A stretch of DNA of 43,387 nucleotides from Punctularia strigosozonata HHB-11173 SS5. Its lineage: Eukaryota; Basidiomycota; Agaricomycetes; Corticiales; Punctulariaceae. The notes under the pieces were generated by a model. That model was not told where the DNA came from. It ran no database searches and was given only the letters and a program-made list of their open reading frames with translations. The DNA is taken from positions 486,775 through 530,161 of the forward strand of contig NW_006767448.1 in the NCBI RefSeq assembly GCF_000264995.1, given 5' to 3'. The stretch's first letter is position 1, and the number at the start of each line of letters is the position of its first letter. Below, one piece after another: positions 11,373 through 37,029 of the stretch. Both the position numbers and the translations under genes were made by a program.

Positions 11373-13541
11373 ATGCCAGCGCTCCGCTCGCACTCTTTCA
11401 GCAACACGTCGAAGTCTCTTTCGTGAGTACTAAGCTTTGATATACCTCTTGTACGCCTCTACTAACGCAGATGGACAGCCTGGGGCAGGCGTCGACCAAA
11501 ACACGGCTTGCCTCACTGGCTTCCCCTCATCCAACACGATATCATACGCCAGCATATCTTCCTACTGGTAGTGAAGTCTCGTTCTCGACGGCATACCCCA
11601 AATCTGTTCTTTCCGCTCCATCGTCGAACGTCTCTCATCCTTTTCATGCCGGTGGTCCACAGAACGGCGGGTACATATCGAATGCGACGACAGGATATCA
11701 CCATAGCTCCCACTAGTGCGCATCACGGTGCAGTTGAATCTCACATGTTACTAACCTCCGTGCTAGCTATACCGTCGGTTCAAGTGGCTACCCCAGCGCG
11801 CCTCCAGCCTCGCAGGCCTCACGGACCGGATTTCCAGATGGATTAGAGAACGTCCCGGTCGTTCCGGCAACCTCGCAGCCGGCTTATAGTTCTGTTCAAA
11901 CTTACGGTGCTCCTGACCAGGTTTCCGAACGGCGGTCTGATCCGATCGGGTGCGCGTGAGAGATCTCTTCCGGTGAATCAAATTTAATCGTTTCGTCAGA
12001 CACGCCACGGACGCGACCGGTGACTATGGTATCGTTACATCCCCAGCTCCATCACTCGCCCTCGCGGAACGTGAGTGGCAACCCTACTACGAGAATGCAC
12101 CCGTTTCCCTTTCCGCGATGGAGAACAATCAAGACCAGCAGCCTTGTTCTTTACCCCTTTCAACCTTTCCTGCCGATCATTCAGCAGCGCCTGATACCGG
12201 CAAGTCATCGAGCCCATCGTTCGACCGTGGTTTAACTTATTACATATTATCTCAGGCGCGAGCTACCCCGCTTTTGACTTCAACCGGAATACGGATTGGA
12301 TTTTCGACGAGCAATTGATGAACCTCGCCTCTTCAATATTCTCTGCCTCGGACGAGTCGGTTCAAGCCTCGCTATCCGCACAGGACTTAATGGCCCAAAT
12401 ATCGACATACGTACCCAACGACAGTGCCATACTACAACCCGTCCTTCCCCAGCAGGCCCCCGGCAACATACCTACGGTTCAGGCTCCCACCACGTTGTTG
12501 GCTGCTGCAATGTCCGCTGCTTCATCTAGTTCGAATATTCCCATGCCCCCACTTTCGCCTCCGGATCTTGTATCAGATGACGGACGGACCGAGTCGAGTC
12601 CTGAGACTTCGTTTTCCCTTGCATCTGGATGCTCCTCGAACGCTTTTCCTTCACCGGGGGAGATGCCCATGCTTCATGGTCCTATTCAAGATGAAACCCT
12701 GCGGGATATCTCATCCCAGTACCCGCTCCCGGCCACTGTTCCCGCCGCAACGAGCTCCCCGGAAGCCGCGCCGCTGTGGCAGGCACACCCTGCACATGAC
12801 ATGGGCGAACCCTGCACGCCTTCTCAACGCGACTCTTCTGCGATTGGTTTTGTTGCTCCCGGCGTATACGGATCAATGGCTTCCTCAGCTCACGAGCAAT
12901 ATCACCAGAGCTACGAAATTACTCTTACCCAGCCCAAAAAACCGAGCAAGAAGGATCCGAAAAAAACGCTTTTCAAAAACGCAGCCCCCTACACGCCGCT
13001 CCATGGAGCCCTCTTCGACCGATACGTTACGCTCCTTCAGCGCCTTCCATTGCGTCAAGACTGTCCCGTCGGAGGCTGCACCGATTCGCAGCGCACGCAG
13101 TTGACATACTGCCAAATGCAGGCTCATATGGAGAAGGTTCACTACCCAAAAGGCAAGTCGAAGAACGAGAAGATTTTCGGGTGCCCGTTTCATGCCCTAG
13201 GTCGCTGCAATCTCGATAGACCTCTGGAATCTCGCGCAATCACGCGACATGTCATCGCGTCTCACACACACCTGGACAACACCCAATGTTCGATGCCAGA
13301 CTGCGGACACATCGCGTCGCGCTTGGACGCAGCCCGGCGTCACTTAGCCACGCAAATCATCAACAATATCAAGGCGTGGCGAGATAATGACGCCGCCCAC
13401 CCCGAGGTAACGGAGGTTTACAACTCCCTGACGCCTGCCGATTGTGAAGAGACAGATCGACGTCTTCCACCAGCATCCAACAAGTCGTCAAACCAGTCCT
13501 CCTTTCCTCTACTCTCTCCCTCTAATGAGAAGACTTTCTGA
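11373..13541 (+). CDS. C2H2-like three-finger protein with disordered N-terminus (family member D)
   Basis: My model joins 11373-11422, 11479-11715, 11767-11955, 12000-12199 and 12256-13541 into 653 residues. The first 450 or so are Ser/Pro/Ala-rich and disordered, as in fungal transcription factors. A basic patch (KKPSKKDPKK) precedes three finger-like units. Finger 1 is C495-x4-C500 with H516-x4-H521. Finger 2 has FGCPFHALGRC with RHVIASH. Finger 3, QCSMPDC with SRLDAARRH, lacks a clear second His. It is probably nuclear and DNA-binding; the target is unknown. Intron 4 uses a GC donor with the ideal GCAAGT sequence at 12200. A GT-AG interval at 12071-12184 (114 nt, divisible by three) could be an optional intron. 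Introns 1-3 are phase 2, as in the paralogues at 14.3, 18.4 and 34.6 kb. The large last exon is firm; exons 1-4 are best-fit. Confidence 0.75.
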
Positions 13542-14252
13542 TACTCGCGTACTACCTGCGCAAGCAGCCTACCCCTCGCATGCAAATGTTGTTGCGTGGT
13601 CTACGGTTTGTTTATTTTCCCCCACCCTGCATTTCGGAATCATATACCTTACCCCCGGCGTCGTATGCGCTCTCGTAGTTTTTTTGCGGTGTGGATCTCA
13701 GTGGATTTGTTGTACCGGATTATGCCTTTTGTCTCACCATTCATACGTTATCATAGTAATTTACACGCCGGAATCTGTACAACTATAATACAAAATATAT
13801 AAAACGCTTCGTCGGACAAATTCTCAGGCAACATTTCCGCAATAGACGCCGGTAAGGCTACGAGTACGGAAAGAGTCGAAAGAGTCCTGGTTACGTATGC
13901 TTAGCCACAGTGAAATCCAGAGGAGAATCGCCCCGAATCAGAGTAACAGTTGTATCCTGCACTTATTTCTACCCAGCGGCACGCTTTTCACTCCGGACTG
14001 AGTGATATAGTTGGATTGTAGAAGTAAATGTAGGATCGTTGTTCACAAGATCACGCGAGGGAGTAACACGGTATCATGGGATAACATGTCAAAGATATGA
14101 CGAAACGCAAACTAGAAGCGCTAAATGTTGAAGAAGATACTTAGAAAGGATGTTTGTACGGCTATGTGGTACAAATGAAACCGAATTAAATGTATGGTAA
14201 AGCAACGGGTCAAGGACACGAACACAAAAAGGTAGGGAAATAGCCGGTATCA
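13542..14252. other. Intergenic, convergent 3' ends
   Basis: AT-richer spacer between two convergent finger genes. Contains a T/A-rich run near 13785-13805 that could serve 3' end formation of the upstream gene. I see no gene or repeat. Confidence 0.5.
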
Positions 14253-16141
14253 TCAGGGAAACTCGTCATCGTCAGCTTCGTCCTGGGTGTCGCACTCGTA
14301 AGTGGGGTCCAGTTCCGCCATAATCTCCTTGTGCGTCTTCGATTTGCGATGGCGAGTCCGCGCATCGGCGCGCGAAAAAGACCTGCCGCATTCACACATG
14401 AACTTGACACACATGCCATGTTTCTCCGAGACGAGGTGCCTTAAGAGCTCCTTGCGCGTCCCCGATGTGTGATCGCAAAATGGGCAGTGAAAGCTGCGTC
14501 TCCCTTCGGCCAGGTTTCGTTCCGAGATGTGGTCGCTCAGATGGGAAATGAGGTGCTTTGTCGGCACCTCGTTGTTCTCGCAGCGCGGCCAGCGGCAAGT
14601 AGTTCTGCCGCCCGATTCGACGGTATCGTAAGGCTTGCTCCCGCGGCGGCGTACCGGAGCTTTCGCAACGTTGCGCCGGGGACGGGCGGTCTCCGACTGC
14701 CGGGGCTTTGTAGTGCGTCTAGGATGACGAGAAGTACGCGACGGTCCCGCAAGTGATTCAGATGACGAGTTAAAGTTCGCAATGTCGGACGCTGCGTCCG
14801 CGAGGGCGTGTGGTTGGTCGGGAGCTGCCAAAGCAGGGGGTAGAGCCGGTTGACGAGGCTGTTGCAAGTCTAAAGCGGCCTGCGCATGACGGGGTCCGAT
14901 TTCGTTCACGAAAGGGGGGAAAGTTGAAGTTGTTGCGGTGCCTCCGGTCACAAAGAATTGTTGAGATGATGCCGACGCTTGCTGAGAGTAACTCGCGGTA
15001 AATGGAGGTTGACGATGATTCTGCCGGTGGCTTATGGCGGCATTGCGGGCAGGGTCGTAGAAAGGATGAGCCATCGACGGTGCGATGTAGCGGTGATGCG
15101 CATCAGGAGCGCCGCTATACTGGCGGTTCCAGTGGGCAGGGAGACGAGAACCGGTAGAGACTTGCTCGCCTGGAAAGAACGTCGGCGCCTGAGTTGGAAT
15201 ATGCGAATCAAAACCGGGATAAGCCGCTTCGGGAGGAGGCCTGCGCAATAGAAAAATACCTGTCAGTGTATTTTTGGGGAATCGCGGACGGGTGACGTAC
15301 AGGTTAGCATAGCCTTGAGCGAGAAAGTCTCTCATCATCATCGGGTGCGCGCCATGAGCTCGATTAGAGCTAGCACTGACAGTAAGTGAGCAAGCCAGTC
15401 ACATTCGAGAAAACACTCCTGGCACGTACAAGGGTGGCTGATTAGTCATGTCGGTGAAAGTCTCGTTTTGCGTCCCCGAGGTAGAGACGTATCCGGTGAA
15501 GGGCATGCCGGACTGCTGAGTATGCGGAAGGGACGCAAACGGCAGATGTTGAGGCCTTGATGTCGCACTGTTGTATACTTGACCGCGGGGTGGCGCATTA
15601 TGGGCAGAAGGAACCTGTGGTATGGGAACAGCCTGGCACGGATAAGACGCCTCGGCCTCCTGTGGATAGAAGCGCGCAGTGGAAGGCACCGACGGCATAG
15701 ACACTGTACGAGAGCCGAACGCAGGAGTCTGAAGTTGAGGAGACATATTAGGCACCGAGGCTGCGCGATTTACGAAGGCAGTAGGATGAAGCATGGACGG
15801 CTGGCTGGCTGTAGAAAAAACCGGTCGCGACATCGATCCCTCCCATGAGCTCGGAGCAACCGCCATGTGTGATTGAGGCGATGGTGGCAAGGAGAACTGA
15901 TCGGGTGTATATTCGAGTCCAGCATCGAAGGTTGGAGTGCGACCTGGGGCTGTCGAGTCGCTCGGTATATGTTCAAAGGTGGTAAACACGCCTTGGCCCT
16001 TGGGCTCATCATCGAGTCCGGGATTTGTCGATCTGAACGAAGGAGGTGAGCTGCTGTGGACCTGCACGAAAATGAGGTCGCTTACGAAGACAGGATCGAT
16101 TGGATGACGGCTTCCCAGTCACACTCTTGAGTCGAATGCAT
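14253..16141 (-). CDS. C2H2 three-finger protein with disordered N-terminus (family member B)
   Basis: Exons 16141-16086, 16032-15430, 15375-15301 and 15240-14253 join in frame to 573 residues; the three introns are 53, 54 and 60 nt and all phase 2. The N-terminal 400 residues are Pro/Ser/Gln-rich and probably disordered. Basic patches (TKPRQSETARPRR, RRRGSKP) look like nuclear localisation signals. Three fingers follow: C460-x4-C465 (CRWPRC) with HLISHLSDH; FHCPFC with x12 and HLVSEKH, a near-canonical C2H2; and FMCECGRSFSRADARTRH with KSKTH, also near-canonical. The tail is acidic (DEADDDEFP). It is probably a sequence-specific DNA-binding regulator; the target is unknown. It is convergent with family member D and has the least degenerate fingers of the four. 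A TATTTAAG box lies 88 bp upstream of the ATG. Confidence 0.83.
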
Positions 16142-16228
16142 GTTGATGTTCAAGGAGATACGATGAGATGCGGATTGTCAGATGGATGGGAGTTGCTTTG
16201 GGATAAGCCGTAGCGCGATGCGAAACGG

Positions 16229-16236
16229 CTTAAATA
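16229..16236 (-). promoter_or_regulatory. TATA-like box of family member B
   Basis: TATTTAAG on the minus strand, 88 bp upstream of the start codon at 16141, in an otherwise GC-rich leader. Confidence 0.4.
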
Positions 16237-17032
16237 ATCGCATGGCGACGAGCGTGCAAGGCTAGACGGTACAACGCAAATGATTGACGACAAAGGATTC
16301 CAAAGAAGCGCGTCTATGGGAGCAGTGGCCACAGCAGCAGGGTTGTAATTTGGCGGACGGGGCGTGCGCAACCCTGGCCGCGTTGCACGAGACCGATCGG
16401 GGCCTTGCACAAGAGCCGCACCCGGGTGATCATATATGGTCCTGCCTGGCTCCATAAAGCCTGGCCATTATCGGAGGTGCGCAGGTTTGGACTACTGGCA
16501 TGGTGCAGGTCGGAGGAGCATGGATTCGACAGATCCGGAGCCGAGCTATTAGATTTAGTTAGGATTCACGTCTGCAGATACTACGGAGTTCCACTCGCCG
16601 TGTGAGCTATTTCTCAAACATATCACTACCACGCTTGAAGCGTAGTCAAGGCGAGCTCCACAAAGCACGAAACATCGCATTGTCTGAGGCGACGCAGCGA
16701 TCACGCTGTGGTTTTACACTACGCATTGCATTGAATGATCTAGATGAGATCTTAACCCATGTCAAGGCCACTGGGGCCGATACTTAGGGAGATTGACCAG
16801 ATCCTTGCAGTGAGTTGAGAGCTGGCAGCACATGATGATGGCGATACAATAAGCGCCGGCGCGGAAGTGAGTTCCTGGGATATGTCCTATCTTCTGGTAA
16901 TGTTTAAGACGGTCCACAGATTACATTATAGGCGAAGAGGCTAGCCATGAGGACAGGTTCGATCTAGGGTTAGCGATGGCACAAAGGAAAGCTTACTACA
17001 GCCGCCGGCTCGACGCTCGAAGGGGACACCGC
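16237..17032. other. Intergenic, no supportable gene
   Basis: Lies behind the promoter of the minus-strand finger gene. Only short frames, none protein-like. A single TAGGGTTAG occurs near 16965. Confidence 0.4.
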
Positions 17033-18150
17033 GGATGACTAAGCATGGCAACTTCCGCGCTTTCCATCAAGAGCGATCTACACGCCGACGTCGGACGACC
17101 AGGGCACAACGACGAGCCAAATGCTCTCTTTGCTAAGAAAGCCAATGAACTCTCCTGGGGACTACCGACATATTCTCTCTTGCTTTCTATAGCTCTCAAG
17201 GATGGTTCATGCCAGTGTTGATGCACATCGCTGGCACATTGGACGAGAACGAGCATAAACAACCTCTCGCTTCCACCGGTTTTTTTCCCCTACTTCTTAG
17301 TACGTATGGAGGCTACATTACGGGGCTTTTGTGGTTGACGATGATTACCTTGTACAGGCAAACCTTGGCGACTCGTGCGCAGTGCTCGCAATCTGGGCGT
17401 GTCCAACCTCCAGAGTATGCGTAATTCTCAAGAGTTTTTCGAGAGAGGTCAGACGGGTCATGATGATATTCGTGTTTCAAAGGCGGTTAACCAGCTCGTG
17501 AGCAACGATTATTACGGTGCATCCGCTACTTGCTCCTTTCGATCCAGGTGTGTCCCACATCCTACACCCACACGTGTCGCTCACGTCGCTCACTCTTACC
17601 ACCTCCAGCCCTACATCCAAATGGGCCCTGAATGATGTATGGAAGAAGGGAGAAGTCACGCGTCCTTGGCCGTCCTTGGACACTGGTCCAAATAACTTGC
17701 GCGCTGGACTGCCTGACAACGCTCAACTCGGGAAACACCACGCAGCACGACCCTCCGTCACCATCTTTCCCCCCTCCCCCTGGTCCTCGAGAACTACCAC
17801 GAGCAATACTAGGTGGACGCCCATACTCGAAGCCGCAGACCCCCTTTGTTGAGGACAGCAAAGGGGAGCGGATGTATACCATCCTGGATCGACTTGCTAT
17901 CTCGCCATCTCTAGTTGCAACGCTACGAACTTCTCGCCGAACTATTGTTCGGCATCGTCCGACTGCTCCGTGACAACGATCTTCCTATTCCCGGCGTCTG
18001 CCCTCGTCAACGGAACGGCGTTCCTGGCCGGTTCCACCCAAGGATTAGGAAGATGGAGGTTTGCAGACCTAAACCTTACGCCTACCTCCAGTCTTCGTAG
18101 GAGCGTCATCTTGGTTGGCACAAGAATGTACATTGAACATCATGTGTATT
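17033..18150 (+). other. Unresolved coding blocks, possible PP2C-like gene remnant
   Basis: Several plus-strand blocks have protein-like codon use but no single model joins them. The frame across about 17311-17400 reads GAFVVDDDYLVQ followed by ANLGDSCAVLA, which closely matches the conserved VANxGDSRAVL core of PP2C-type Ser/Thr phosphatases. Other PP2C signatures (DGHGG, the later DGL/DNxT motifs) were not found. An overlapping different frame at 17375-17512 is also open and protein-like. A third block at 17853-18120 reads as a Cys- and N-glycosylation-site-rich segment. This could be a decayed phosphatase gene, parts of two genes, or chance. The motif is seen; the rest is open. Confidence 0.22.
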
Positions 18151-18428
18151 GCTTAGTCATATCTATCTACCTGTCTACTTTGCTCTCTGCGCTACCTACT
18201 TGGCGATTATAAGAGTATGTATCGTAAGCATCGGGAAATGACTGTGGAGGAGGAAAGAGAATCGGGAGATAGATAGTTAGTGGCTGAATGAACGGTTTGA
18301 TCGAACGCCAGCCGCTCTGCTGGTGCCCGTGCGAGGCGCATTGACGTCGGCGTGACCATCACCATTTTGACCGATTGGCAATTATGGCCTGACTTGGACT
18401 GGTTGAATCTCTCTTCCGTGTTGGAACC

Positions 18429-20179
18429 TCAGCCTTCCATGTCGGCATACAAATCGTCCTCGTCGCTGTCGTCGCCGTCGTCGCCTTCTTCTGAGTAATC
18501 GTGCTCGTAGTCCTCTTCGTCTTCCGATATGGCTCGCTCTTTGCCCTTACGAGACTTCTTGTTGGTGCCTTTGTCATTGTCCACACCGATCGGCCGTGGA
18601 GAGCGAGACCCACTCCCGAAAATTGGTTCGGCCGTCGATAAGTTCGAACGTTGAAGCTCCTCCTCTTCCGAGTCGTCTTCATATTCGTATTCGGACTCGG
18701 GATTGGATTCTGGCACAAGGGGCAGGGGCAGCGAGTGCAAGGGGCCTTTGCGGAGCCAGAAAGCGATCAGGGAAGGAGCTGTGGACGGGGTGATTCGACT
18801 TGTTATCTCGACGGGCTTTCTGCGACGGAGCCGTTTGCCTCGTCTGCGACGAAACATTTTGCTTGGTTTGCGACGACGAGGAGTGGATGGAGGAAGAGTC
18901 GACGGCCCTGCTTCGGCAGATTGACTTGCCGATGTGCACGATGTAGAGCATGTGCTAGTACCTGCACAGGCGGGCGTTGTTCCTTGACCGTCACGAAGAG
19001 CACATGCCCTGGTCGCGCATTCATGCAGAGGCCGAGATGCACCGCGACGAGGAGTCGCTGGAGGAAGGATCGATGATCCTAACAAAGCAGATCTACTTGC
19101 CGATAACCATGCCGATGACCAGGATTCGGGGTGTGTACTGGTACCAGCGGCCTTTGTCCCTTGACCTTCATGAAGAGCGGTACTAGCGACCTTTGTTCCT
19201 CGACCGTCATGAAGAGCGGTACCAGCGGCCTCTGTTCCTTGACCGTCATGAGAAGCGGAAGCCCGGGTCGCGACTCCAGGCGGAGGTTGAGAGCCGTGAC
19301 GACGGGGAGGGGTCGGAAGAGGGGCCGTTGGTCCTGACACAGCGGATTGATTCGTTGATGACAAGGATGTACGGGTCCCAGTGGGCGTTGTTCCTCGTTC
19401 ATCACGAAGAGCGACGTTCGCGAATCCGGAGACAGGCTGAGATCCACCGCAATACAATACCGCCCCGAGTCCCATTGCCAGAAAGAGGGGATCATCCTGC
19501 GAACGTTGAACGGGATGCAGGAAGGGGCTGCGCTGCCTCGCCTGGGCAGACGGGATGTTTTGGACATCGCGCTCCCATGTCGTTCGAGGATACAAGGCGT
19601 TTATTGAAGGGAGCAGAGCCGAGGAAGGTACGGAATCTTGCTCTACATCGACGCGAGAAGAAGGACCAGGAGAAGAACGGCGGTCCAAGCCAGAATGAGC
19701 GTCAGCGACTCCGTAAACTTGATTGCTGAGACTGAGCTCCTGCAAGGGACGTCGGCTGGGGGATGGCTGTGATGACGAACGTCTGCGGGTGTATGCGATT
19801 AGATGGCGCTCGCGTATATAGTATGAAGGAGGACGTACCTAGATGCGCCACGGTCATCCACCATCTCGGGACCCGGACTCGGCGTACGGACATACAAGCG
19901 TTGCCGTTTGGGGGGTGGGCTACGAGTATAGAAGCTTTGTCAACAGACAGAACACACGATGTCGTGGCTCGTTGTAGTCGCACCTCAGCTGTACGGGAGC
20001 TATGTCATACTGCCGAGTTCTCTTCGGCCCCGGGTCACAGGGAGCGGATCTCCCGCCGGTCATCCATGGCGGCCGTTGTTCTTTATCCGGATCATCATTC
20101 CTAGAGCGTTGATCAGCGAGTGCTATGAAAGATAATGAATCGTAGATAAGATGGTGCAAGCGTACTCGGAGGAGGGCAT
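18429..20179 (-). CDS. Disordered repeat protein with acidic C-terminus (family member F, no zinc finger)
   Basis: Exons 20179-20166 (14 nt), 20100-19984, 19919-19839 and 19782-18429 join in frame to 521 residues; all three introns (65, 64 and 56 nt) are phase 2. Residues around 45-50 (PPPKRQRLYVR) resemble a nuclear localisation signal. The middle is built of nested repeats: a longer unit with the pattern SAxxGPxxLPPxTPRR appears three times, and a DGQGT-centred 13-residue unit appears in tandem. A very basic segment (RRRRGKRLRRRK) is followed by an acidic C-terminus (EDEEDYEHDYSEEGDDGDDSDEDD). No known domain is recognisable. The gene architecture and location match the finger genes, so it may be a sister that never had or has lost the fingers. 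A nuclear acidic-tailed protein is a reasonable guess only. Confidence 0.68.
19151..19267 (-). repeat. 39-nt coding minisatellite, three units
   Basis: Three imperfect 39-nt units (19151-19189, 19190-19228, 19229-19267) in the coding exon, each giving 13 residues of the form DGQGTxAAGTALH. Diverged single copies of the core lie at about 18975-19000 and 19385-19413, and a fainter one in exon 2 near 20066-20095. The period is a multiple of three, so copy-number change keeps the frame. Confidence 0.8.
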
Positions 20180-20289
20180 GATCACAAAGAGCTTATGAGA
20201 CGTGCCGATTGGAAAGCAACGCTTGATCGGCGTTATAGATATTGGAATATGTTCGTGATCGTGAAAATGAGCAGAGGTCGTGAATGAAT

Positions 20290-20297
20290 TATTTAAA
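20290..20297 (-). promoter_or_regulatory. TATA-like box of family member F
   Basis: TTTAAATA on the minus strand, 111 bp upstream of the ATG at 20179. The spacing is similar to that of family member B. Confidence 0.4.
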
Positions 20298-22540: not shown

Positions 22541-24540
22541 TTATAGAATATCTTCGGAGGACATGATCTTCTTTCCTTTGCCAGCTCGACCGCGCCCACC
22601 AGCGGCCCGCGCGTTGGATCGCGTCTTTGGCTTCTTCGTGAGATGAGTCACCCCACCGCGATGGGAAGAGTCGGACCTTGTGTACGTAGACTTGCAGTCG
22701 GGACTATCGCACTTGCAACCGTACCTCCCCTCCTGACAATGCGACATGGTCGTCATGTGGCGCGCGAGCGTACGTGGGTGCGCAAAGCGTCTCCCTGTGC
22801 CGTCACCGAGACGGCACCGCGGACGAGGAGACGGGCAGGCACAATAGCCGTGGGTTTGTTTGTACTTCATCGCATGGCCCGTGAGGTGCCACTCCACATC
22901 GAGGTGCAAGGTTTTCCGGCAGTCCGGCCACGGACATTGAATAGGTCCTGAGCGCTCGGCTCTGTCGGCGAGTCTTTCGGGGACGACCCGCTTCAGGCGG
23001 GGTTTCTTCGCGGTCCGCTGTGGACCAGAGGCGGGAGCGCGCTGTTCGAAGGCCATCGACATCGAATCGGGAGGCGCGTACGACGCGATCTGCGGTCCCG
23101 CCTGGGCAGGATGTTGACCGAAGCCGGTGGGCGTGGGTGGGGAAGAGTACGACGCGTTCGACGAAGAGGAAGAACATAGCGAAGGGGTGCGGGAGGGGCC
23201 CGGCGCAAGGGGGGTTCGGGTCGGGTTTGGATCTATCTGCCAGAAATTGTCTCTGAGAACGGCAGGCGCTGAGGCCGGTGCTTGTCCGTACAACGACGCC
23301 GGCGGTAACGATGAACTCGCATTGGAGGTGCCTGACGCGATCGACGACAGAGCCAGATCTGGATGTGCCTGACATGCGCTGGCTTCGTGCGCTTGCCTGT
23401 AAACGTCTTCCCAAGAAACGTGAGCCGAAGGTGGCGGACGGGTGGAAGATCCTGTGCTGGAAATGTGGAGTCGGGGTTGCTTGATCGGGAGGTAGGCCGA
23501 CTGATGTGCGCTTCCATACTCGGGTGAAAAACCATGAGAGGACTCGGAGTTGATTTGGGAGTAACCGCCGGGCACTGCTGGAGCCGCACGGAGCCACTCC
23601 TCCCAAGGGGTCTGAGAGACTACCGCTGGCCTCGAGGCGCCCAATGCCGAAGCACGGCTGATAGAGGGAAGAGGCCACATGTTCTCATCGTCTAGGGCGA
23701 GAATTGGCTGGTAACTGGCGTACGAGCAAGTCAGGACGGCGATATGTCATTTTCGTGAGACGCGTACCTCGAGGGTAAAGGCGAATTCAGCCAATTGCTC
23801 GGCGGCGGCGAACCCGAAGGACGGCCGTGCGCGAGCCGCAAATCGGGATGAGCCGCGACGGGTTGCGCATGAAAAGCGTTGGATGAGCGGTCCGTGGACA
23901 TCAAAGTCGAAGGATGTCCGCGCGTCGGCGGCGGCGCAGAGATAGATGGCTGTGTGGTGACGGGCACAGGCTGATTGTAGGATACCGCTTGCCCCGAGGA
24001 GAGGTCATACCAGCCGTTCGCGGATGGCGCGACCGGAGAGTGGCGGGGCGGCTGCGACGGGATGAGCAACGACGACAGTGCGGCGAACGCTGGGTGGTCG
24101 GCGGACACCGGATGCATGTAGGCGGCGTCGTCGTCGAACGACTCTGGCATTAGAGCTTGGAAGCAGGCTTCCAGTTCTTCATTCCAGTCGTCGGATGATG
24201 CTCCAGAGGTGGGAGGAGGCGCGGGAGGGATGGAGAAAGGGTCGGGCTCGAAAGTCATCGCGTTGTGGGCGAGGTCGTGTGGCGGAGGTGTATCCGTCAA
24301 GGAAAGCTGAGCGAAAGAGGAGGATCTGAGCGATGGACGAGTTACAAATCGGTGAGCAGAGGGCAGCGCGGAGGATATCATTTGAACATACGGGAGGCGC
24401 GCGTGAAGGTCATTGTTCGATTCGTGAAGCGAGCCGTAGATCGGCTGTGCGTGAATCTGGTCGTAGATGGACTGGGCGAGAGAAGGCGGATCATAGCAGG
24501 GAAGTGGCTGATTACGGGACGATTGGTATGAAGAGGACAT
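22541..24540 (-). CDS. C2H2-like three-finger protein with disordered N-terminus (family member C)
   Basis: Two exons, 24540-23768 and 23714-22541, join through a 53-nt phase-2 intron (branch-like CTGAC) to 648 residues. The N-terminal 450 residues are Pro/Ser/Ala-rich and disordered, with one acidic patch (SDDWNEELEACFQALMPESFDDD) that could be an activation segment. A basic linker (TAKKPRLKRVVPERLADR) precedes the fingers. Finger 1 is C518-x4-C523 (CPWPDC) with H534-x3-H538. Finger 2 has CACPSPRPRC with RRFAHPRTLARHMTTMSH. Finger 3 has CKCDSPDC with YTRSDSSHRGGVTH. The C-terminus is Arg/Gly/Lys-rich. It is probably a nuclear DNA-binding protein. It differs from its paralogues in having a long coding first exon. 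The role is inferred from domain layout only. Confidence 0.85.
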
Positions 24541-27641: not shown

Positions 27642-28205
27642 NNNNNNNNNNNNNNNNNNNNNNNNNNNNNNNNNNNNNNNNNNNNNNNNNNNNNNNNNNN
27701 NNNNNNNNNNNNNNNNNNNNNNNNNNNNNNNNNNNNNNNNNNNNNNNNNNNNNNNNNNNNNNNNNNNNNNNNNNNNNNNNNNNNNNNNNNNNNNNNNNNN
27801 NNNNNNNNNNNNNNNNNNNNNNNNNNNNNNNNNNNNNNNNNNNNNNNNNNNNNNNNNNNNNNNNNNNNNNNNNNNNNNNNNNNNNNNNNNNNNNNNNNNN
27901 NNNNNNNNNNNNNNNNNNNNNNNNNNNNNNNNNNNNNNNNNNNNNNNNNNNNNNNNNNNNNNNNNNNNNNNNNNNNNNNNNNNNNNNNNNNNNNNNNNNN
28001 NNNNNNNNNNNNNNNNNNNNNNNNNNNNNNNNNNNNNNNNNNNNNNNNNNNNNNNNNNNNNNNNNNNNNNNNNNNNNNNNNNNNNNNNNNNNNNNNNNNN
28101 NNNNNNNNNNNNNNNNNNNNNNNNNNNNNNNNNNNNNNNNNNNNNNNNNNNNNNNNNNNNNNNNNNNNNNNNNNNNNNNNNNNNNNNNNNNNNNNNNNNN
28201 NNNNN
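27642..28205. other. Assembly gap (564 N)
   Basis: Unsequenced stretch flanked on both sides by C-rich DNA. It removes most of the upstream region of the O-methyltransferase; only 97 bp of leader are visible before its ATG. Confidence 0.99.
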
Positions 28206-28302
28206 TTCCACTACTCTCCTCCCCCCCCCACCCCCCACGCCTTCCCCCCGCCCGCGCGACACCCCCCCACCATCGGTAGGCCCCCATCGCTCTCCCCCCC
28301 CG

Positions 28303-31268
28303 ATGACGTTCGCCGAGCTCCGCGCCCTGCACGCCCTCATCGGCACCGCGCTCGACGACATCCAGCGCACCTACACCGCCTCCGCCGCTCCCCACCCCCT
28401 ACACCCGCCCGACGCCGATCCCGACGGCACCTCGCCGCCCGACTTCCCCTCGCTCTCCGCCCCCTACGACCCGTCCTCGCCCTCCGAAGCGCTCCTCCAC
28501 GACCCCGCCGTCGCCCGCGCCTGCGCCCGCATCGTCGCCGCCGCAGGCCAGCTCACCGCCGCCGTCCAGAACCCTTTCCTCACCATATGGTAAGGGCAAA
28601 AAATAAAAATCTCTTTTCCGTTCCCTTCGTTTTTTTGGGGGGGCCTGAGCGAAGTCGATTTTTTTTTTTGTTTGTTTTAGCGACGCGACGATGACGTACC
28701 ACCTCCCGGCCTGCATGCGCGTCCTCGAAGCATCCCACGTCGTCGAGATCCTGCGCGAAGCCGGCCCGGACGGTCTGCACGTCGAACGCATCGCGGCCCG
28801 GGTCCCGTATCCCATCGACTCCCGCACTCTCGGTGCGTTCCACTTTTTTTTTCACCAGTTTTTATACGCATATCGTCGCTGACGGCCTATCCCCTCGGTT
28901 CAAATCAAAATCACATTGTGGAACGCTCAGCGCACGTGCTCCGCCTGCTCGCGACGCACCACGTCCTGGCCGAACGCGCGCCGGACGTGTTCGCCAACAA
29001 CCGGCTTTCGTCGTACATCGACACGGGTGCGCGTCTCTTTCTTATTTATCATACCGTTCCTCTACCGCGCCATCGCTGATCGGTGATACGTTGGGTGGGG
29101 CGGGCGGGCATGCAGGCAAATCCGTAGCCGAGATCCTGTCCAACCCGGACTCCAAGTACGCCGACACGGACGGCGTCGCCGCTTTCGTAGGGCTCAAGTA
29201 CGTGCCCACCCCCCCCCCTTCCCCCCTTCACCGACATCCCGAAAAAAAAAACCTTACGATGCATTTTGACAACCCCTCTTTGCTCTGTAGCACGGACGAG
29301 CTGTTCAAGTCCTCGGCGTACCTCGCCGACGCCCTCCTCCGCCTTCCCGAGGACAGACCGCCGACCCGCCGGCCGCATCGTCGCGGCGGCCAGGTCTTGC
29401 CGACGCTGCGCTCGTTCGGGAGCGGCACGTCGCGCGAGTCGCTGTTTGGCGACCCGGGGGAGGACCTGCTTCTCCTCCGTAAACCCGTTAGTCAGGACGT
29501 CACGCCTGAAGCACGAGTACAGACTCGCGTTCAAGAGAAGGAGAAAGAGCAAGAGCAAGAGCAAGTCCTGCAGGAGAGGAAGAAGGAGAGGGAGAGGGAG
29601 GGACAGAGGGACGTGCTCATGAGCCCCGGCTTCGGCTCCGGCTCGCACTTTGGCTGCGAGCCTCCTTCTGCCCACCACCCCTTCGATATCGCGGAAGGCA
29701 AGCGCGATGGTAGCAACAGAAAACGCCCGCCGCCGCCGCCTTCTTCTTCCCCGCTCACCGCCCCGCCCGCCGAGGGAGCCGGATCGGGATCGGCGACGAT
29801 CCTCGCGAGCTCGTCGTCGCCGTGGAGAGTCCCCGCCTCGCAGACGTTCTCGTGGGCGCGTCCGTTGGATCTCGGGGCGATGCAGATGAAGATGACGAGG
29901 GAGGGAGGGAGAGACGAAGGAGGCGGCGGTCCGGGTGGTGGGGGGGACGAGGGGGCAGGCGGGAGCGGGAAGGCGAGCGGGCTGGGGTTGGGGTTTCGGC
30001 ATCCCCCGTCTTGGGCGGCGAAGCGCGCGCGAAGGGGTTCGACCTCGAACGCGCCTTTGGTGACCGCTTCCGACTCTGCTACCGAGACCGGGACCGAGGC
30101 CGAAGAGAAGACGACGCCGGTGCCGGTCGTGACCACGGCGTTTGCGCGCGCGTTCGGGACGGACGAGCCGTATTTTGCGTGGCTCGAGTCGTGCGCGAAG
30201 GCGGGCGGGGGCGAAGGAGGAGAAGGAGAAGAAGGAGAAGGGGAAGAAGGAGGAGAAGAAGGGGAAGAACGCGCGTTGACGTTTTGCTCGCGGCTGCACC
30301 GGTTCGGCGCGGCGATGAGGGGGAGCGCGCGGTGGGAAGGCGAGAGCGGGATTTTGGACGGTAAGTTTGACCTCTTTCTTCCTCCTCCTCCTCCTCCTCA
30401 CCCTCTCCTCCTGCAACACTGTATCTGACACTGTGCTTCTTTGTTTTTTGTTTTGCCAAGGTTTTGACTGGGCGTCGTTGGAGCCTGGCGCGCTCGTGGT
30501 CGACGTGGGGGGCGGGGTGGGGAGCCACGCGATGCGGCTCGCGCGCGCGTTTCCGGCGCTGAGGTTCGTGGTCCAGGACCGCGCGAGGGTGTGCGAGATG
30601 GGGAGGGAGGTGTGGAAGGTGCAGTTTCCCGGGGCGGTGGAGGGGGGTAGGGTCGTGTTTCAGGGTGCGCGTTTTTTTTTTTTTTTCCTTTTTTTTTTTT
30701 GTTCTTTTGGATAGAGGCTGACCTTTTTTATCTTGGTTGGTTTGGTCTGGTTCTGGTCCAGGACACGACTTTTTCGACGAGCAGCCGCGCGTGGCGAGGG
30801 AGGCGGATGTGTTCTTGCTCCGGGTCATTACGCACGATTGGCCGGATGCGGACGTGAGGCGCATCCTGGGTCGGTTGAGGGAGGTGGCCAAGCCCGGCGC
30901 GAGGCTCGTAGTCGGGGAGCACGTTCTGGGCGAGGCTTGCCATCTCGGCGGGCGAGGAGCAGACGGTGCATGGGACTGGCCTCTGCTCGCGAATGGTGGA
31001 AGGGCGAGCGCGTGTGGGCATTATATGGACATGACGGTATGTCCACTCTGCGCCTCTTTTTTTCCCACCCGTGGACGCGCAGCGCTGAGTGTGAGATGTG
31101 AAGATGCTCTCCATGTTCAACGCGCAGGAGCGTACCGCACGCGAGATGCGGGCGTTGTGGGCGAGTGCGGGGTGGTGCGTTGGGGAGGTGAGGAGGGCGG
31201 CGGGCAATGGCGGGTTTGGATATATCGTGGCGGAGCCTGCGGTCGAGCTGCATCAGGGACGTCTTTAG
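28303..31268 (+). CDS. COMT-like O-methyltransferase with large low-complexity insertion
   Basis: Eight exons join in frame: 28303-28589, 28681-28832, 28931-29026, 29116-29197, 29291-30360, 30461-30664, 30762-31036, 31104-31268, giving 776 residues against roughly 450-500 for the family. The N-terminal helical dimerisation part reads through LRLLATHHVLAERAPDVFANNRLS and DELFKSSAYLADALLRLP. The SAM site DVGGGVG is at 577-583. The catalytic His is probably H655 in RVITHDWPDADVRRIL. The end matches the family (LLSMFNAQERTAREMRALWASAG-like). It should methylate a hydroxyl of a small aromatic or polyketide-type molecule in the cytosol using SAM. Between residues about 228 and 484 lies an insertion of Lys/Glu/Gln, poly-Pro, Gly and acidic repeats, all in exon 5 and continuously open. 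Introns carry unusually long T-runs. The insertion could hide an unrecognised intron, or be a true linker between the two domains. Confidence 0.85.
30213..30275 (+). repeat. Purine-rich GAA/GGA simple repeat in coding exon
   Basis: Imperfect GAA/GGA repeat coding for Gly/Glu residues inside exon 5 of the O-methyltransferase, next to the FAWLES segment. A sister tract of AGAGCA units lies at about 29546-29563. These look like slippage products. Confidence 0.7.
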
Positions 31269-34200
31269 GCTCCCCGGATGCGCGGTGGAAAGGAAGCGGT
31301 TTAGTTTTATTCGTTGGATCGGCGGTCGGTATGTTCGAGCGCTGGGATGTTTTTCCGGGTGCGCGCGAGATGATCGGATGTCCCTTCTATAGATTATGTT
31401 CGTGTAATACAACATCAGCTGTTACCTCAGTTATTGCGTTGCTGAGATGAGGGATCGGATCGTCGGACGTTATGATCTGCTCAGAACCATGCTCGCTCAC
31501 TCGTCAGCTAATCAAGGTACTATTGTAACCTATCAAGGAACATCCCTTTGGAACAGCCTCAAGGTAGGTAGATAGGTAGATTGCCGACGAGGTCCCGGTA
31601 GCGGAACAGCCGGTTGCTGCGCTGCACGTACGCCACTCGTGCAGTCTACAGCGTCTTCCCATCGAACATACATAAAGGGGTTGCAAGTCGTCCTGAAAGT
31701 TACGAGAAAATGTGAATAACAGGATCATGATACTTAGAGCCCTACAGTTTACTCTGACTGTAACTGTTTTCATTGTAGTCCTCGAGATGAGTGAGTCAGG
31801 CGAGAGCAGCGCTTCTTAACATCTCTGATGTTTCATACCTTCAGTTGTCATGGCCTTAACGTGAGTAATATCCACGAGTAGACTCATGCGCAGGTCATTG
31901 TAACGAGTTGTAGGTTCAAATATCCGAAGGACGCGCAGTTTCATAAAATCACGGTCTGATCATGTTTTGCTCATGCTCGACCTACGCTACTAATTATCCC
32001 GATACATAGAATTACGACACCGGATCACTGGCTGTGGCAGCCGTAAATGACATAGTAATTGCGATTGCAATGTCGTACTACCTGTCCACTTGGCAAACGG
32101 GTATTAAACGGTACTCTCCTCCTCCTGTTGGCCCTCCTTTTCGAAATTTGACTCGCTATCCGCACAGAACAAACACGTTGCTCAACCGCATGATCACGTA
32201 GTGTAATTACGACAGGAGCCCTCACCAGTATGGCGGAGCTGGCCATCCGCATATGCGTATATCCTATGCAGTGGGTGGCCATATGACCATACTCATCGTA
32301 AGAAACCAAATTTGTTACTATGCCCGACAATCTACAGCTTCGTGAATAGCCATAAGTTAGTAATTATGTTATCTGTGTAAACGGACAAGGCAGATAGGTT
32401 GATTGTAGTCTATGCCAGCTCTCTTCTGGCTATGTACGGTTGCATGTCCATGCGCAAAGCACGTCGCTGACACAAATATGTCGACCTTCACCAGGCTCAA
32501 CGCGCGCCAATCTCTCAAGCAATACTCTCAAGGAAACAACATCATCGCGTCGGACAACGGCTTCCCTCTCATCCGGATGACATCAGGAACATCCTCATGG
32601 TACAAATTAGCTAGAATTAGCTGAGGTTGGAGATACTTAGAAGTAATTGTACTGATTGCACCAAAGTATGCAAATTATGCCCAATTATCTGAATTCAACA
32701 GGTCCCCCTTCAATTAGTTGTAACTGGGGATAACAGATCAGGCTCCTGGCGGTTTGGCTGCAGGAGGTTCGGGAGAAACAGGCAGCGAAATTCTAGGAGG
32801 CGAACCCATTACAAGTCAGGTTCGGGACTGTCTTCGCACAAATTACTACGATCAACCGCTCACTGACTACGCCATCGCAGCTCCTATTTTTGCGTCGTCA
32901 GGGTTGGATGATTCAACGAAGATCATTGACTGCAGTGTATACGGTGACATTGGCGCTAATGCCTGACATAGGAGGTCATCCTGTATGTGAGACGTTGTCA
33001 GCAGCTTTCCTGAGATTATCGCACTCCCGGGGATAGAGGGAAGTGCTAAATAGTGTTGCAAGCAATCGTGAGCCGTAAGCAGCATCTTATAGAAGTACAC
33101 CATGTTCATGCGCCGTATCTACTCGCTGGCACCCAATACGACCATCTCAGAAACTTGTCTCCGGAGAGAGGTTGCACCGTCGGCTCCGGGGGCGTTCACG
33201 TTGCGTTCAAACATCAACTTTGGGCTGAGACCGAGAGGGAGGCAGTACAAATTTAGGCTGTCTCGTGGCGGTAGTTGGCGCCTTTTCATGAATCCCATCG
33301 CCAGTATTCCACGATAGTCCCGTTGAATGGTTCAATCCACCAAGAGGATAGTCTCTCCAGTTTGGGAGGTTGAGACTCTCGCATCGGTTCGACTTTGCGA
33401 TGACCCTGCTCTTGATCTCGATCTCCCCAATTCAGGGTTGCAAAGCAGAGTTCTCAGGCGTAATCTAGAGCTCGATATCTCACCAAGTTTCATCGATATT
33501 CCTTGGTTTTCGCTTCACAGTTCGCCGATACGCCTGTGCTGACCTGGAGCAAGCTCTCCGCGACCTTCTTTCGCGTCATGCCTCGCATCCGGCCCTCAAG
33601 TGGCAGTGTCGTGTCGGAAGCCCGCGTCGCTGGTGAACGTAGGGAGGCAGATAAGTAATGTAGCGCAGAGCTTAGTGTGGATAATAGCGTGCATCACCTA
33701 CAGCTGATCGGAGAACATCGAGCTCGGCGTCGCCGATTGATTAGTCAGCATGACGTGCCGGCGTCGGCTGACGTCGGGGCCGCCCGGTGCTTCCTCGATG
33801 GGCGCTACGGTGCTGGCTGCGATGCGTCTTAGACTCTGGTAGTCCATCCACTCTGGCTTGCAACTGTCTGACAACACCAGCCTTGATAAACAACAAAGAA
33901 GCCCCTCAAAAGGTGCCCATGTCGGCGCTGGCTGGCTCTATCCTCCAGCAAGCCGAACTCGCATCGCCAACAACGCTTTGTCGAACTTTACCCCTGCATT
34001 AGCGGTGCATTGCACTGCGCGCGCCAAGCTCTTGTTGCTTGAGAACAAAGACGACGCAGGAGGACATCCTGATCTATCCTGATGTACGGAGAATCAGGAA
34101 TGGGGGGGGGGGGGGCTTTGTGCATATGTCACATGTCGCATTGTCGCATTGACCTCGTTCTGCTTAGCGCTCCGGGCGACATAGGGAACGAAAGCGGTCT

Positions 34201-34621
34201 ATACTCCATTACGCCGGCCCAGACGAGGTGATTTCCTGGGCAAAACTATTCGCATGTTCCCGCTGTGAGAGCGTCACATACTGAAAGGAGTTGGGTACGC
34301 GCAGACAGGAACGCGGTCACGTTCGAGCATCTTCCCGGAGCCGACGCGCGCGTCACGAGCATAGGAACTGTGGAAACAACGCGCTGCGCGTCTTTACCGT
34401 ACAACGCCTCGGTTGAAAGACGAAGGAGTGTAGCCCTCGTACAAAATACCTGTAGCAACGCGTTCTACTCCTTCCCCCGCAATCCCTCTTCTAGCGCTCT
34501 TCAGCTCTTCATCGCATACGCTCAGGTCTAGCCCACATCTCTCTCCGTTCTGTCTGCCCTTACGAACAACTTTCATCAACTTGATCGTCGCGTCTCGTTC
34601 CTCCACCTCGACAGACTCAAC
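31269..34621. other. 3.3 kb gene-poor, AT-richer stretch
   Basis: Only short frames. The most protein-like ends at 32966 (plus, about 50 residues) but has no splice-consistent partners or motif. G14 occurs at 34102-34115. TGACGTCGG with a nearby near-copy lies around 33750-33775. I see no gene, transposon or RNA here. Confidence 0.4.
34102..34115 (+). repeat. G14 homopolymer
   Basis: Fourteen consecutive G on the plus strand in the gene-poor stretch, about 0.5 kb upstream of family member E. Confidence 0.8.
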
Positions 34622-37029
34622 ATGGACGACAAGTTCAATTGGAGATCCTTTGTCAACTGGGCCTGGTTGGGAATAAACCAGACGTGGGTTGCTTACATCC
34701 CACCATTATATCTTTCTCATACGAGTATATTAGGCCACCGGTCACGCCAAACCAGACCGCCACGGCTCTACCCTCTCCGGCGGCCAAAGACCCGCATGGC
34801 GCCTCCTTGTCGACCTCGCAGAAAAGCCGCACAAGTCATTCACCAATCAGCTCTACAGTCAGGTGCGACGGGTTGTATTCGTTGAAGACCCGCTGTGTCT
34901 TATTCCTTTAATTTTTCAATAGCCTTACTGGCCCGGTACACGATAAAGAACTTCCTGCAGACTCGAACGTTACGGCGCCTATACCGATAGAAGTTGACCC
35001 GAAAGTATCTCTGCCTGCAAGACGCGCGAGAGACGCTGCCATTGTGCAACTTTGGTACGACAACTTTCTGTCCTCCTAGCTCATGGTTCTTACTCATCCC
35101 TGCCCCGCTTCAAGCGTCGATCCAAGGCTACTCACACTCGATGGGAAGGAAGTAGACGGATGCATCCCGAATCTGGGAAACGGTGCTCCTTCCAAGGCCT
35201 CGGAACTACTCGAGTGGCTCTATATCAACTATGGGAAGAATCAAGTGCTCCCGGCTCCATCCGCATTCGGTCCGTTTATCAAACAAGCTTCAGCTTCTCC
35301 GAAGGATGTGTCGCCTTCTGGCTCCCGGGACGCCCGCTCAGGAAATGATCACGCCCAGCCGTCCGACTTACCGTTGCCCGAGACGGTGAACGCGACACCT
35401 CAGCCACATACTTCGCATCCACCTGCGTCGCACCTATCGACTGCTTATCAACCCGCGTCGTCTTTCGGCAGACATGCCGCCCTTCCTGGCGTTGCTCGCC
35501 CCCAGTTCGATGCTTCGCAGCCGCATATAAATCCGCGTACTCCCCAGCAACCGGTGATTTGGAGGTACCCGCACGCGCAGGCACTCCTCGTTGAACCCGT
35601 TTACGCTCAGCAGCATGTTATGCTGCCTCACGCTCAGGTTACCCGCTCTGGCGATACCCGCGTTCAGGCGCGCAGCGTGCAGCCGTCCGTTGCTCACCAG
35701 CCCACCATCCAGCAGCTGCTCTGGACCCAATACGTTCAAGCCGTCCAAGAGGGTCGAATTCGTATCCAGCAACATACCCTACAGCCCTCTCCGGCTGCCC
35801 TCCAGCAGCCAACGCTTCACGATGACGCACAGTCCGTCCGGGCTGCAATGGTTCGAGCCCAGCAGCAAGCCCGTACGCCACCTGCGGCTCAGCATCAAGC
35901 TGCCACCCCCGAACACTCGCACGGTCAGGCCGTTCGCACCGCTCATGTACGCGGTCAGGCAAGACACGGTGCAACGCCGTACGATCGTCCCGCGGCTGTT
36001 CCTGCGCAAAGATCGAGCCTTGACTCGAGGCTGAACATCCTATGCCGCCCAGCCGTTAACCTTGCCACTCGCCCGTCTGCGGAGGCACATGCTCAGTACC
36101 TGCAGATATACCGTCAACCTCCACCACCGTATACCGATCAATATCAGGCGCCTTCCTACTCCGAGCATACACAGCCCCAGCCGCAACCCATATCACGGCA
36201 GCCGATCCCCATACAGCTTCCGAATCATCACCCTCCCCAAAATCCGCATGTGATCCAGCAACAACAAAACGCGGCACTTCAGCGGTTCATGAGGACGTAC
36301 CCTGACGAGTTCACGAACCCGCGGCAGTTGATGATGCTCGCTCCGGAAGATTCACACTTGCAGCACGCAGTGTTTCAGCAGTACCAGCGTCTGCCTCAGT
36401 CGTCGACCGATGACGCTGACGATGAATCCTCGTGCTCGATCGTGCCGGCTTCGGACCAGCCTGCACATTTTATACCGACACCTCCTCCGTCTGATCGGTC
36501 CACGAACTCTTCGTCTCCTGAGCCGGGCCCTTTGCGCACGCGGAAGCAGAAGAAGATTCGCAACGCGGCCGCGCCGTACGCGAAGGCGAAGGCTGCCCGT
36601 AATAAATTGCAATCGGGCAGCGAAAAGCCGAAATGCATGGGAGCCAGGCGGAAGGCTGTGGTGCTCAGGGGACCATGCACATGGGACAATTGCGAGACTG
36701 CCAACGGTGACAATCCCATCACCTTCACGCGGAGCGAAGCGCTCGCACACGTCAGGAAGTGCCACATCCCAAAGAGGGACGGGGACGCCAACTATCTATG
36801 CGCGTGTAAGCATGATGCCAGCTTTGTGACGGGCCGGCAGACGATGGTTCGACACTACGTCGCGTGTCACATGGGTATCGGGGCCTCCTGCGCGGCGACT
36901 GGCAATATTTCATCCCGATCGGACTCAGCACATCGCTCGGCCAAGACAAAGAGGGCTCGGGAGGCGAAACAAGCGGAAATCCAGTGGCCTGCCGACTCCA
37001 ACGACGCAGAGGACGAGGACGAGATGTAG
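34622..37029 (+). CDS. C2H2-like finger protein with long Gln/Pro/His-rich N-terminus (family member E)
   Basis: Exons 34622-34683, 34734-34862, 34923-35054 and 35115-37029 join in frame to 745 residues; the introns (50, 60 and 60 nt) are all phase 2. Residues about 200-560 are rich in Gln, Pro, His and Ala with many QPSxxxQQ runs, a typical disordered activation-type region. A basic segment (RTRKQKKIR) precedes the fingers. Finger 1 is C629-x4-C634 (CTWDNC) with H653-x4-H658. Finger 2 has YLCACKHDASFVTGRQTMVRH with YVACH. Finger 3 keeps SRSDSAHR but has lost its second Cys and last His. It ends in an acidic tail (DSNDAEDEDEM). An ATG at 35083 is in the same frame but lies inside the predicted third intron. 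It is probably a nuclear regulator; the target is unknown. Confidence 0.8.

What the first reader, a model, noticed from the sequence alone, without database searches (positions are those of the whole stretch)
11373..37029. A local family of finger-type regulators whose introns are almost all phase 2
Four genes (11373-13541, 14253-16141, 22541-24540, 34622-37029) share one plan: a disordered N-terminus, a basic linker and three C-terminal fingers. Finger 1 always has C-x4-C (CPVGGC, CRWPRC, CPWPDC, CTWDNC). Finger 2 ends in R-H-x(4,5)-H. Finger 3 has a shared [ST]-R-x-D-[AS]-x(2)-R core (SRLDAARR, SRADARTR, TRSDSSHR, SRSDSAHR). The N-termini do not align by eye. Intron phases in my models are 2,2,2,1 / 2,2,2 / 2 / 2,2,2, and the finger-less gene at 18429-20179 is 2,2,2. 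Other genes here have mixed phases. Phase-2-flanked exons are symmetric and can be lost or duplicated without frameshift. This looks like a duplicated, fast-diverging, possibly undescribed regulator family. Caveat: I chose some splice sites by frame continuity, which biases toward consistency.
Basis: partly seen in the sequence, partly recalled or inferred. Interest (0 to 1): 0.75.

Follow-up and report, generated by a model that had tools for sequence, protein, structure and literature searches.

The report
Fungal finger-gene family, phase-2 introns
A fungal chromosome segment carries about a dozen fast-diverging zinc-finger genes, probably gene regulators, whose introns almost all cut the reading frame at the same codon position, a rare gene layout that lets exons be added or lost without breaking the protein.

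Summary
The fourth (D) and the finger-less gene stay undecided. Of eight related loci elsewhere on the same contig, six have models with introns, all phase 2. Inside the training region 27 of 28 introns of eight finger genes are phase 2, against 38 of 170 in other genes; where stop codons alone force the phase, 14 of 15 against 18 of 83. Simulation shows no phase-2 bias, but a finder trained without these genes loses A and B and recovers 9 of the 28 introns. Six member queries put 27 of 72 non-self genome hits on this contig, 2% of the genome. The proteins are C2H2-type finger proteins, probably DNA-binding regulators. Sequence kinship of A and C to the rest is weak, and finger 3 lacks zinc ligands in A, C and D. 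Two precedents for phase-2 locking, aphid bicycle and Tetrahymena LRR genes, concern other proteins. RNA evidence is missing.

The parts
11373..13541 (+). Gene A: exons 11373-11422, 11479-11715, 11767-11949, 12000-12070, 12256-13541; introns phase 2,2,2,1; finger block within 12945-13538 (finger 3 lacks its second histidine)
   Evidence: intron 4 (185 nt, phase 1) is the least certain; lost when finger genes are left out of training
14253..16141 (-). Gene B: exons 16086-16141, 15430-16032, 15301-15375, 14253-15240; introns phase 2,2,2; complete three-finger block in 14256-14681
   Evidence: relatives on the same contig by whole-genome search; all three phases forced by stop codons given the borders; lost when finger genes are left out of training
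22541..24540 (-). Gene C: exons 23768-24540, 22541-23714; one phase-2 intron; finger block in 22544-23014 (finger 3 has Gly in place of its first histidine)
35083..37029 (+). Gene D: single-exon model preferred; alternative start 34622 with three 5' introns (50, 60, 60 nt, all phase 2) scores lower (66.9 against 71.6); finger block in 36532-37026 (finger 3 lacks ligands)
18429..20179 (-). Possible finger-less relative or relic P: 14-nt first exon (20166-20179) and three phase-2 introns with good signals, then a stretch without coding signal
   Evidence: forced models only, scores below zero

Best explanation
These genes belong to a clustered, fast-diverging family of C2H2-type finger proteins, most likely nuclear DNA-binding transcription regulators, spread over about 236 kb (C16:425931-662322) of one 684-kb contig of a fungal genome. 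SHOWN by computation: the contig is strongly enriched for relatives; members share a C-terminal finger block (finger 1 usually C-x-W-x2-C; finger 2 often ending R-H-x4,5-H; finger 3 often R-x-D-[AST]-x2-R) and a long N-terminal region, rich in S, P, Q, T, G and N around its introns, that no longer aligns; nearly all their modelled introns are phase 2, so 19 of 20 internal exons are a multiple of three long. INFERRED: fingers 2 and 3 read DNA (helix positions -1, 2 and 6 of finger 3 are R, D and R in 7 of 11 members, the Zif268-like pattern for a G-n-G triplet, recalled), finger 1 packs against finger 2 (recalled from GLI), the N-terminal region works as an activation or repression surface, and copies arise by local duplication and then diverge or decay. 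The phase-2 lock most likely descends from an ancestor whose 5' part was already built of phase-2 exons; it tolerates exon gain, loss and length change without frameshift, so gene structure has outlasted sequence.
For: Whole-genome single-protein searches with six member queries (B, F, E, K, M, H): 27 of 72 non-self rows at E up to 10 lie on C16, 2.0% of the genome; rows are not independent. Gene models: 27 of 28 introns phase 2 in eight members against 38 of 170 in other genes of the region. Phases forced by stop codons alone: 14 of 15 against 18 of 83, p = 2e-7; internal exons divisible by three: 19 of 20 against 49 of 129, p = 9e-7. Gene M, outside the training region: 2,2,2. Other C2H2 genes of this genome: phases 7/12/4 in ten models from 13 partial loci. 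No effect of S/P/Q/T/G/N-rich flanks: other genes 20/23/9 at a flank fraction of 0.4 or more, family 0/0/20. Simulation: inserted phases 56/66/71, predicted 50/61/54; 109 of 193 inserted introns recovered exactly, 37/35/37. The finder rebuilt UBC13 and profilin nearly end to end. Family profile against PDB: classical C2H2 proteins, best E 1.4e-18. Model of D: three helices, each after short strands; best fold match GLI, probability 0.94 but E 0.05. H and I: neighbouring duplicates, dS 0.61, dN/dS 0.50, fingers 0.66.
Against: No RNA evidence for any border. The finder was trained on a region that includes the finger genes. Trained without them it lost A and B altogether and recovered 9 of the 28 introns; over 11 family loci it then predicted 20 introns, 15 of them phase 2, against 37 of 166 elsewhere; over six penalty settings the family share ran from 6 of 16 to 16 of 21. 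A first version of that test, which wrongly counted the finger loci as non-coding, gave 6 of 12 at the default setting. For G, M, C and A the best model beats the best one without phase-2 introns by only 1.4, 2.4, 5.5 and 5.6 log units, and a phase-2-only model of A is no better than one without introns. The related locus N on contig C13 gives a weak model, phases 2,2,1,0,1 when forced and phase 1 when free. K is a single exon in the free model and 2,0 when forced upstream. A, C and D as queries found only themselves plus one 12-bit row. The all-member profile also hits other C2H2 genes of this genome (14 best frames printed, 19.9-39.6 bits), as high as or higher than A, C and D when left out (21.3, 17.2, 22.6 bits). 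The fold model of A has no confident match. Finger 3 lacks ligands in A, C, D, H and K.
Confidence: 0.7

Rival explanations
1. Modelling artefact: introns in weakly coding, S/P-rich sequence were chosen because they keep the frame open, and the true phases are mixed.
For: Low coding scores of these genes (0.045-0.111 per residue); loss of A and B when they are left out of training; no RNA data.
Against: 20 of 28 introns are the top-scoring overlapping GT-AG pair by splice signal and length alone; 14 of 15 stop-forced phases are 2; simulation gives no phase-2 excess and spurious introns fall 13/27/15 in 96 intron-free genes; 39 introns of other weakly coding genes fall 17/12/10.
Confidence: 0.1
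2. Real phase-2 genes, but not one family: unrelated C2H2 genes of one region that share the layout by chance or by a regional insertion bias.
For: A and C score alike with a generic C2H2 profile; the all-member profile hits other C2H2 genes too; N-terminal exons share no sequence.
Against: Other genes between them on the same contig have ordinary phases; queries B, E, F, H, K and M find one another or G, I and J on this contig; left-out E and F score well above the control profile (61.3 and 54.6 bits, against 39.2 and 35.9).
Confidence: 0.13
3. A genome-defence family: fast-turnover finger proteins that silence transposons, as KRAB zinc-finger proteins do in vertebrates (recalled).
For: Clustering, local copies, decay (I, J) and divergence; contact positions of finger 2 other than position 6 vary between members.
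Against: Only two or three fingers, few to single out one element (recalled reasoning); no repressor domain above cut-off in the stretches given to Pfam (finger-bearing frames, not all 5' exons); no test of expression or binding was possible.
Confidence: 0.1
4. Finger proteins that have largely given up DNA binding and act through protein or RNA contacts.
For: Finger 3 lacks zinc ligands in A, C, D, H and K, and J has two fingers only.
Against: Helix residues R(-1), D(2), R(6) of finger 3 are kept in A, C, D and K although ligands are missing; four ligands can be assigned by hand in fingers 1 and 2 of all 12 members tabulated, with unusual spacing in A, C, D and H.
Confidence: 0.12

Closest known systems
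Bicycle genes of aphids (PMC9168663; start of abstract and passages seen)
   Same: Fast-diverging paralogues whose kinship shows in gene structure more than in sequence; almost all internal exons phase 2.
   Different: Bicycle genes have about 17 exons on average (minimum 5), unusually small, and encode putative gall effectors; here 1-8 exons, internal ones 48-603 nt, and finger proteins. No kinship is claimed.
Tetrahymena 90-bp-exon LRR genes (PMC6564038; parts of the abstract and passages seen)
   Same: Extreme phase-2 bias (more than 96% of 90-bp exons) in young, tandemly expanded genes.
   Different: There the exons are exactly 90 bp and form arrays in LRR genes; here exon lengths differ and exons share no sequence.
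Basidiomycete C2H2 finger proteins (PMC12295980; parts of the abstract and passages seen)
   Same: Same superfamily; tandem copies are reported in Agaricomycotina such as Volvariella volvacea (23%) and Pleurotus ostreatus (14%).
   Different: The word 'phase' does not occur in that paper's main text; no phase-locked cluster appears in the passages seen.
tandem-CWCH2 proteins: Zic/Gli/Glis, PacC, Zap1 (PMC2837044; parts of the abstract and passages seen)
   Same: C-x-W-x2-C in finger 1 in 9 of 12 members; D's best fold match is GLI.
   Different: The motif needs tryptophan in two successive fingers; finger 2 has none in 12 of 12 (segments listed).

Membership tests
Classical C2H2 zinc fingers (PF00096) | score above Pfam's curated cut-off | tested here: inconclusive
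   Met for 2 of 11 proteins scanned: F (25.9) and K (28.8; cut-off 25.2). Below it: E 19.9, M 19.4, H 15.5. No PF00096 row for G, N or A, B, C, D; B has sub-threshold finger families only, C and D no Pfam row up to E 1. I and J were not scanned.
Classical C2H2 zinc fingers (PF00096) | two Cys and two His ligands in every finger | tested here: inconclusive
   All three fingers complete in B, E, F, G, M, N; finger 3 incomplete in A, C, D, H, K; J has two fingers (by hand; I not tabulated).
Tandem CWCH2 (Zic/Gli/PacC) | tryptophan between the cysteines of two successive fingers | tested here: not met
   Finger 1: 9 of 12; finger 2: 0 of 12. Definition.
Bicycle-type phase-2-locked genes (as a kind of gene structure) | almost all internal exons phase 2 | tested here: met
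   27 of 28 introns in eight members, plus 3 of 3 in M, by prediction. Against: N and the leave-out run, 15 of 20.
Bicycle-type phase-2-locked genes (as a kind of gene structure) | five or more, unusually small exons | tested here: not met
   1-8 exons; only A, E, H and J have five or more.
Bicycle-type phase-2-locked genes (as a kind of gene structure) | secreted effector protein | not tested
   No signal-peptide predictor was run.
Tetrahymena 90-bp-exon LRR genes | exons of exactly 90 bp | tested here: not met
   Internal exon lengths 48-603 nt, none 90.
The C16 family itself | whole-genome match among members on C16 | tested here: inconclusive
   Met for B, E, F, G, H, I, J, K, M; not met for A, C, D as single queries. 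Left-out profile scores: D E 2e-5, A 5e-5, C 8e-4 among 3068 frames, but generic C2H2 genes score as high.

The most novel reading that the evidence does not exclude
An independent case of a fast-diverging gene family locked to phase-2 introns, beside aphid bicycle genes and Tetrahymena LRR genes, and to my knowledge the first in fungi and in transcription regulators: a modular 5' half made of interchangeable phase-2 exons in front of a DNA-binding finger block, so that regulators can change their activation surface exon by exon while gene structure, not sequence, marks the kin.
Probability: 0.45. Interest if true: 0.75.

Novelty: new variant of a known kind. Interest (0 to 1): 0.6.

Why it matters
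If borne out by RNA, extreme phase-2 bias would be a recurring mark of fast-diverging families in insects, ciliates and fungi, and could be used to find regulators in mushroom genomes that sequence searches miss. It would make a question testable: does a symmetric exon layout speed the turnover of disordered regulatory regions, or is it only inherited from one founder gene? It also points to a cluster of young regulators whose targets are unknown.

Tried and rejected
Tried: the first version of the gene finder put introns everywhere because GT and AG were counted as signal (discarded, replaced). The first leave-out test counted the finger loci as non-coding (biased against them, repeated properly; both reported). 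Exon-to-exon homology between N-termini: nothing better than E 0.12. Search for further hidden phase-2 genes between the called genes: 4 weak models with two or more introns, none all phase 2. Composition of the flanks as cause of the phases: rejected. Position near the 5' end as cause: other genes' first, second and third introns fall 19/11/11, 13/9/9 and 13/10/3, rejected. Fold of A: no confident match. Locus N on C13 as a second clean test: weak model, counts against. Decayed-looking locus on C2 (L019, judged by eye): no model.

Not examined: 49,360 of the 240,000 bases of C16:380001-620000 read N, among them 27.7 kb directly after the window, so members may be hidden. Of C16, 380001-620000 and 660301-663500 were read; the rest only through searches. 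G, I, J and N were not used as search queries. No fungal proteome, RNA-seq or other fungal genome was on hand.
Full report
WHAT WAS CHECKED. The window is C16:486775-530161 of a 33.57-Mb genome in 32 contigs. Aligned, the blocks share 22-26% identity with the first and eleven invariant columns. Pfam finds no family above cut-off in the finger-bearing frames of A, B, C and D.

THE FAMILY IS LARGER AND CLUSTERED. A whole-genome protein search with B found relatives, the best four non-self rows all on C16. Fetching C16:380001-620000 and scanning it with the profile and with single blocks gave E (426.5 kb), F (428.4), G (566), H (571.6), I (575), J (577) and K (580 kb); M at 660 kb came from a genome search. 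With A-D that makes 12 loci on C16. With six member queries 27 of 72 non-self rows (E up to 10) fall on C16, 2% of the genome. Outside C16 one relative lies on C13 (N, 40% identical to M over about 105 residues) and a decayed-looking one on C2 (L019, by eye). A, C and D as queries find nothing but themselves, apart from one 12-bit row for C. With a profile built from B, E, F, G, H, J, M and N they come next after the other members among 3068 open frames of the region, but with modest scores: D 19.0, C 13.5, A 12.1 bits. A control profile from other C2H2 genes of this genome gives A 14.5 and C 13.3 bits; D is not among the 20 rows printed. The all-member profile also hits other C2H2 genes at 19.9-39.6 bits (14 best frames printed), as high as or higher than A, C and D left out in turn (21.3, 17.2, 22.6). 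So D is a likely member; A and C are attached by place, motif and gene layout rather than by score. E and F are well above the control (left out 61.3 and 54.6 bits, control profile 39.2 and 35.9).

THE INTRON PHASES. I wrote a small gene finder (donor, branch-point and acceptor matrices, intron lengths, 3-periodic coding model, no phase preference) and self-trained it on C16:380001-620000, of which 190,640 bases are not N (an earlier version was discarded). D and K came out as single exons; I had no gene model. Together 27 of 28 introns are phase 2; the other 170 introns of the region are 75/57/38. Of genes with two or more introns, 6 of 7 finger genes but 1 of 31 others are purely phase 2. 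M, outside the training region, gave 2,2,2.

CONTROLS. Splice-signal medians of family and other introns are alike. In 67 simulated genes with introns put at random the finder returned 50/61/54 for true 56/66/71, recovering 109 of 193 exactly (37/35/37), and in 96 intron-free genes it invented 55 introns, 13/27/15. Introns of other genes with similarly S/P/Q/T/G/N-rich flanks, in weakly coding genes, or at positions 1 to 3 show no phase-2 excess. Other C2H2 genes: 7/12/4 in ten models from 13 loci of about 3 kb, so partly cut. By splice signal and length alone, without frame, and with a model trained without the finger genes, 20 of the 28 introns rank first among all overlapping GT-AG pairs of 42-200 nt (the printed heading says 42-120). 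Where only one frame is free of stops, the phase is 2 in 14 of 15 family introns and 18 of 83 others; 19 of 20 family internal exons are multiples of three against 49 of 129. The last intron, whose phase follows from the finger frame, is phase 2 in 8 of 9 genes with introns, counting M (binomial 4e-5 at background 0.22). As checks of the finder, its UBC13 model aligns to solved UBC13 over residues 2-147 of 148 and its profilin model to a solved profilin over 1-126 of 126.

AGAINST. Trained without the finger genes the finder loses A and B, which suggests that their codon usage is unlike the rest; over 11 family loci it then predicts 20 introns, 15 of them phase 2, and 9 of the 28 earlier introns return; over six penalty settings the share ran from 6 of 16 to 16 of 21. 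The best model beats the best one without phase-2 introns clearly in E, B, H (17-19 log units), J (9.3) and F (7.4), less in A (5.6) and C (5.5), and hardly in M (2.4) and G (1.4); for A a phase-2-only model is no better than one without introns. N is weak and mixed, K forced upstream is 2,0, D is undecided, and the finger-less locus P is not a confident gene. A curious point: G, M, N and P all show a 14-nt first exon before a phase-2 intron, a length not seen among 41 other first exons, four of which are 20 nt or shorter; N and P came from forced or lowered-threshold models.

WHAT THE PROTEINS ARE. The family profile matches classical C2H2 proteins in the PDB (WT1, CTCF, KLF, Egr1 among the 60 best of 222; best E 1.4e-18). 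The model of D's block (mean pLDDT 74) has helices 67-77, 102-114 and 130-150, each after short strands; its best fold match is GLI (probability 0.94, E 0.05; none at 0.001 or better). The model of A's block (pLDDT 69) has helices 55-66, 96-107 and 127-151 but no confident match. In 12 members tabulated (I left out, N included), helix positions -1, 2 and 6 of finger 3 are R, D and R in A, B, C, D, E, F and K (7 of 11 with a finger 3); position 6 of finger 2 is R in 8 of 12; finger 1 varies. By the recognition code as I recall it, this suggests a shared G-n-G G-n-n core with variable flanks; this is inference. In A, C, D, H and K finger 3 lacks one or more ligands, yet in A, C, D and K the contact residues are kept.

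TURNOVER. H and I are a neighbouring pair, 70% identical over 721 aligned nucleotides, dS 0.61, dN/dS 0.50 (fingers 0.66). I has a stop in frame, has lost part of finger 2, and lacks what in H lies between the 5' flank and a point about 140 nt into exon 5 (the last by my arithmetic), so this loss is decay, not a clean exon loss. J's frame ends after finger 2. The picture is duplication and decay.

COMPARISON. In aphid bicycle genes almost all internal exons are phase 2 and gene structure finds kin that sequence misses (PMC9168663, passages). [quoted passage not shown] A survey of 1032 C2H2 genes in 30 Basidiomycota reports tandem copies, but 'phase' does not occur in its main text (PMC12295980, passages). 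Ten word searches showed no paper on a phase-2-locked finger family, judged by titles and abstract starts of the rows listed (at most 20 per search, while searches had more hits than rows); the library is open-access only. The tandem-CWCH2 definition (PMC2837044) is not met.

VERDICT.

Noticed in passing
window 42878-43243 (+); C16:558493 and C16:591503: A second local family: three predicted proteins begin alike (...FVVKVNYSLPRFRELQALD...DALGRIPYP...FVVGITYTPARFRHLRTLD...DALGGIPHP...VVAIAYAPPRAQVLTALH...ALGGIPLP). The first has no Pfam match up to E 0.01.
   Followed up: partly
window 18429-20179 (-): Finger-less locus with a 14-nt first exon and three good phase-2 introns in forced models, but no coding signal further on; may be a relic or a finger-less relative.
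   Followed up: partly
A, C, D and K, finger 3: The presumed DNA-contact residues R(-1), D(2), R(6) are kept although zinc ligands are missing.
   Followed up: no
C16:660464-662322 and C13:984500-986405: The two related loci M and N each lie about 18-23 kb from the end of their contig (contig lengths), possibly near chromosome ends.
   Followed up: no
C16:404402 and 408445; 413225 and 414849; 407029, 411310 and 456443: Other sets of similar predicted proteins in the same stretch (by eye), so the region is rich in local duplication in general.
   Followed up: no
window 27642-28205; C16:530162-557855: Runs of N inside and directly after the window; members may be hidden there.
   Followed up: no
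window 5945-6589 (-): Cytochrome P450 frame (PF00067, E 9e-31) about 5 kb from gene A.
   Followed up: no
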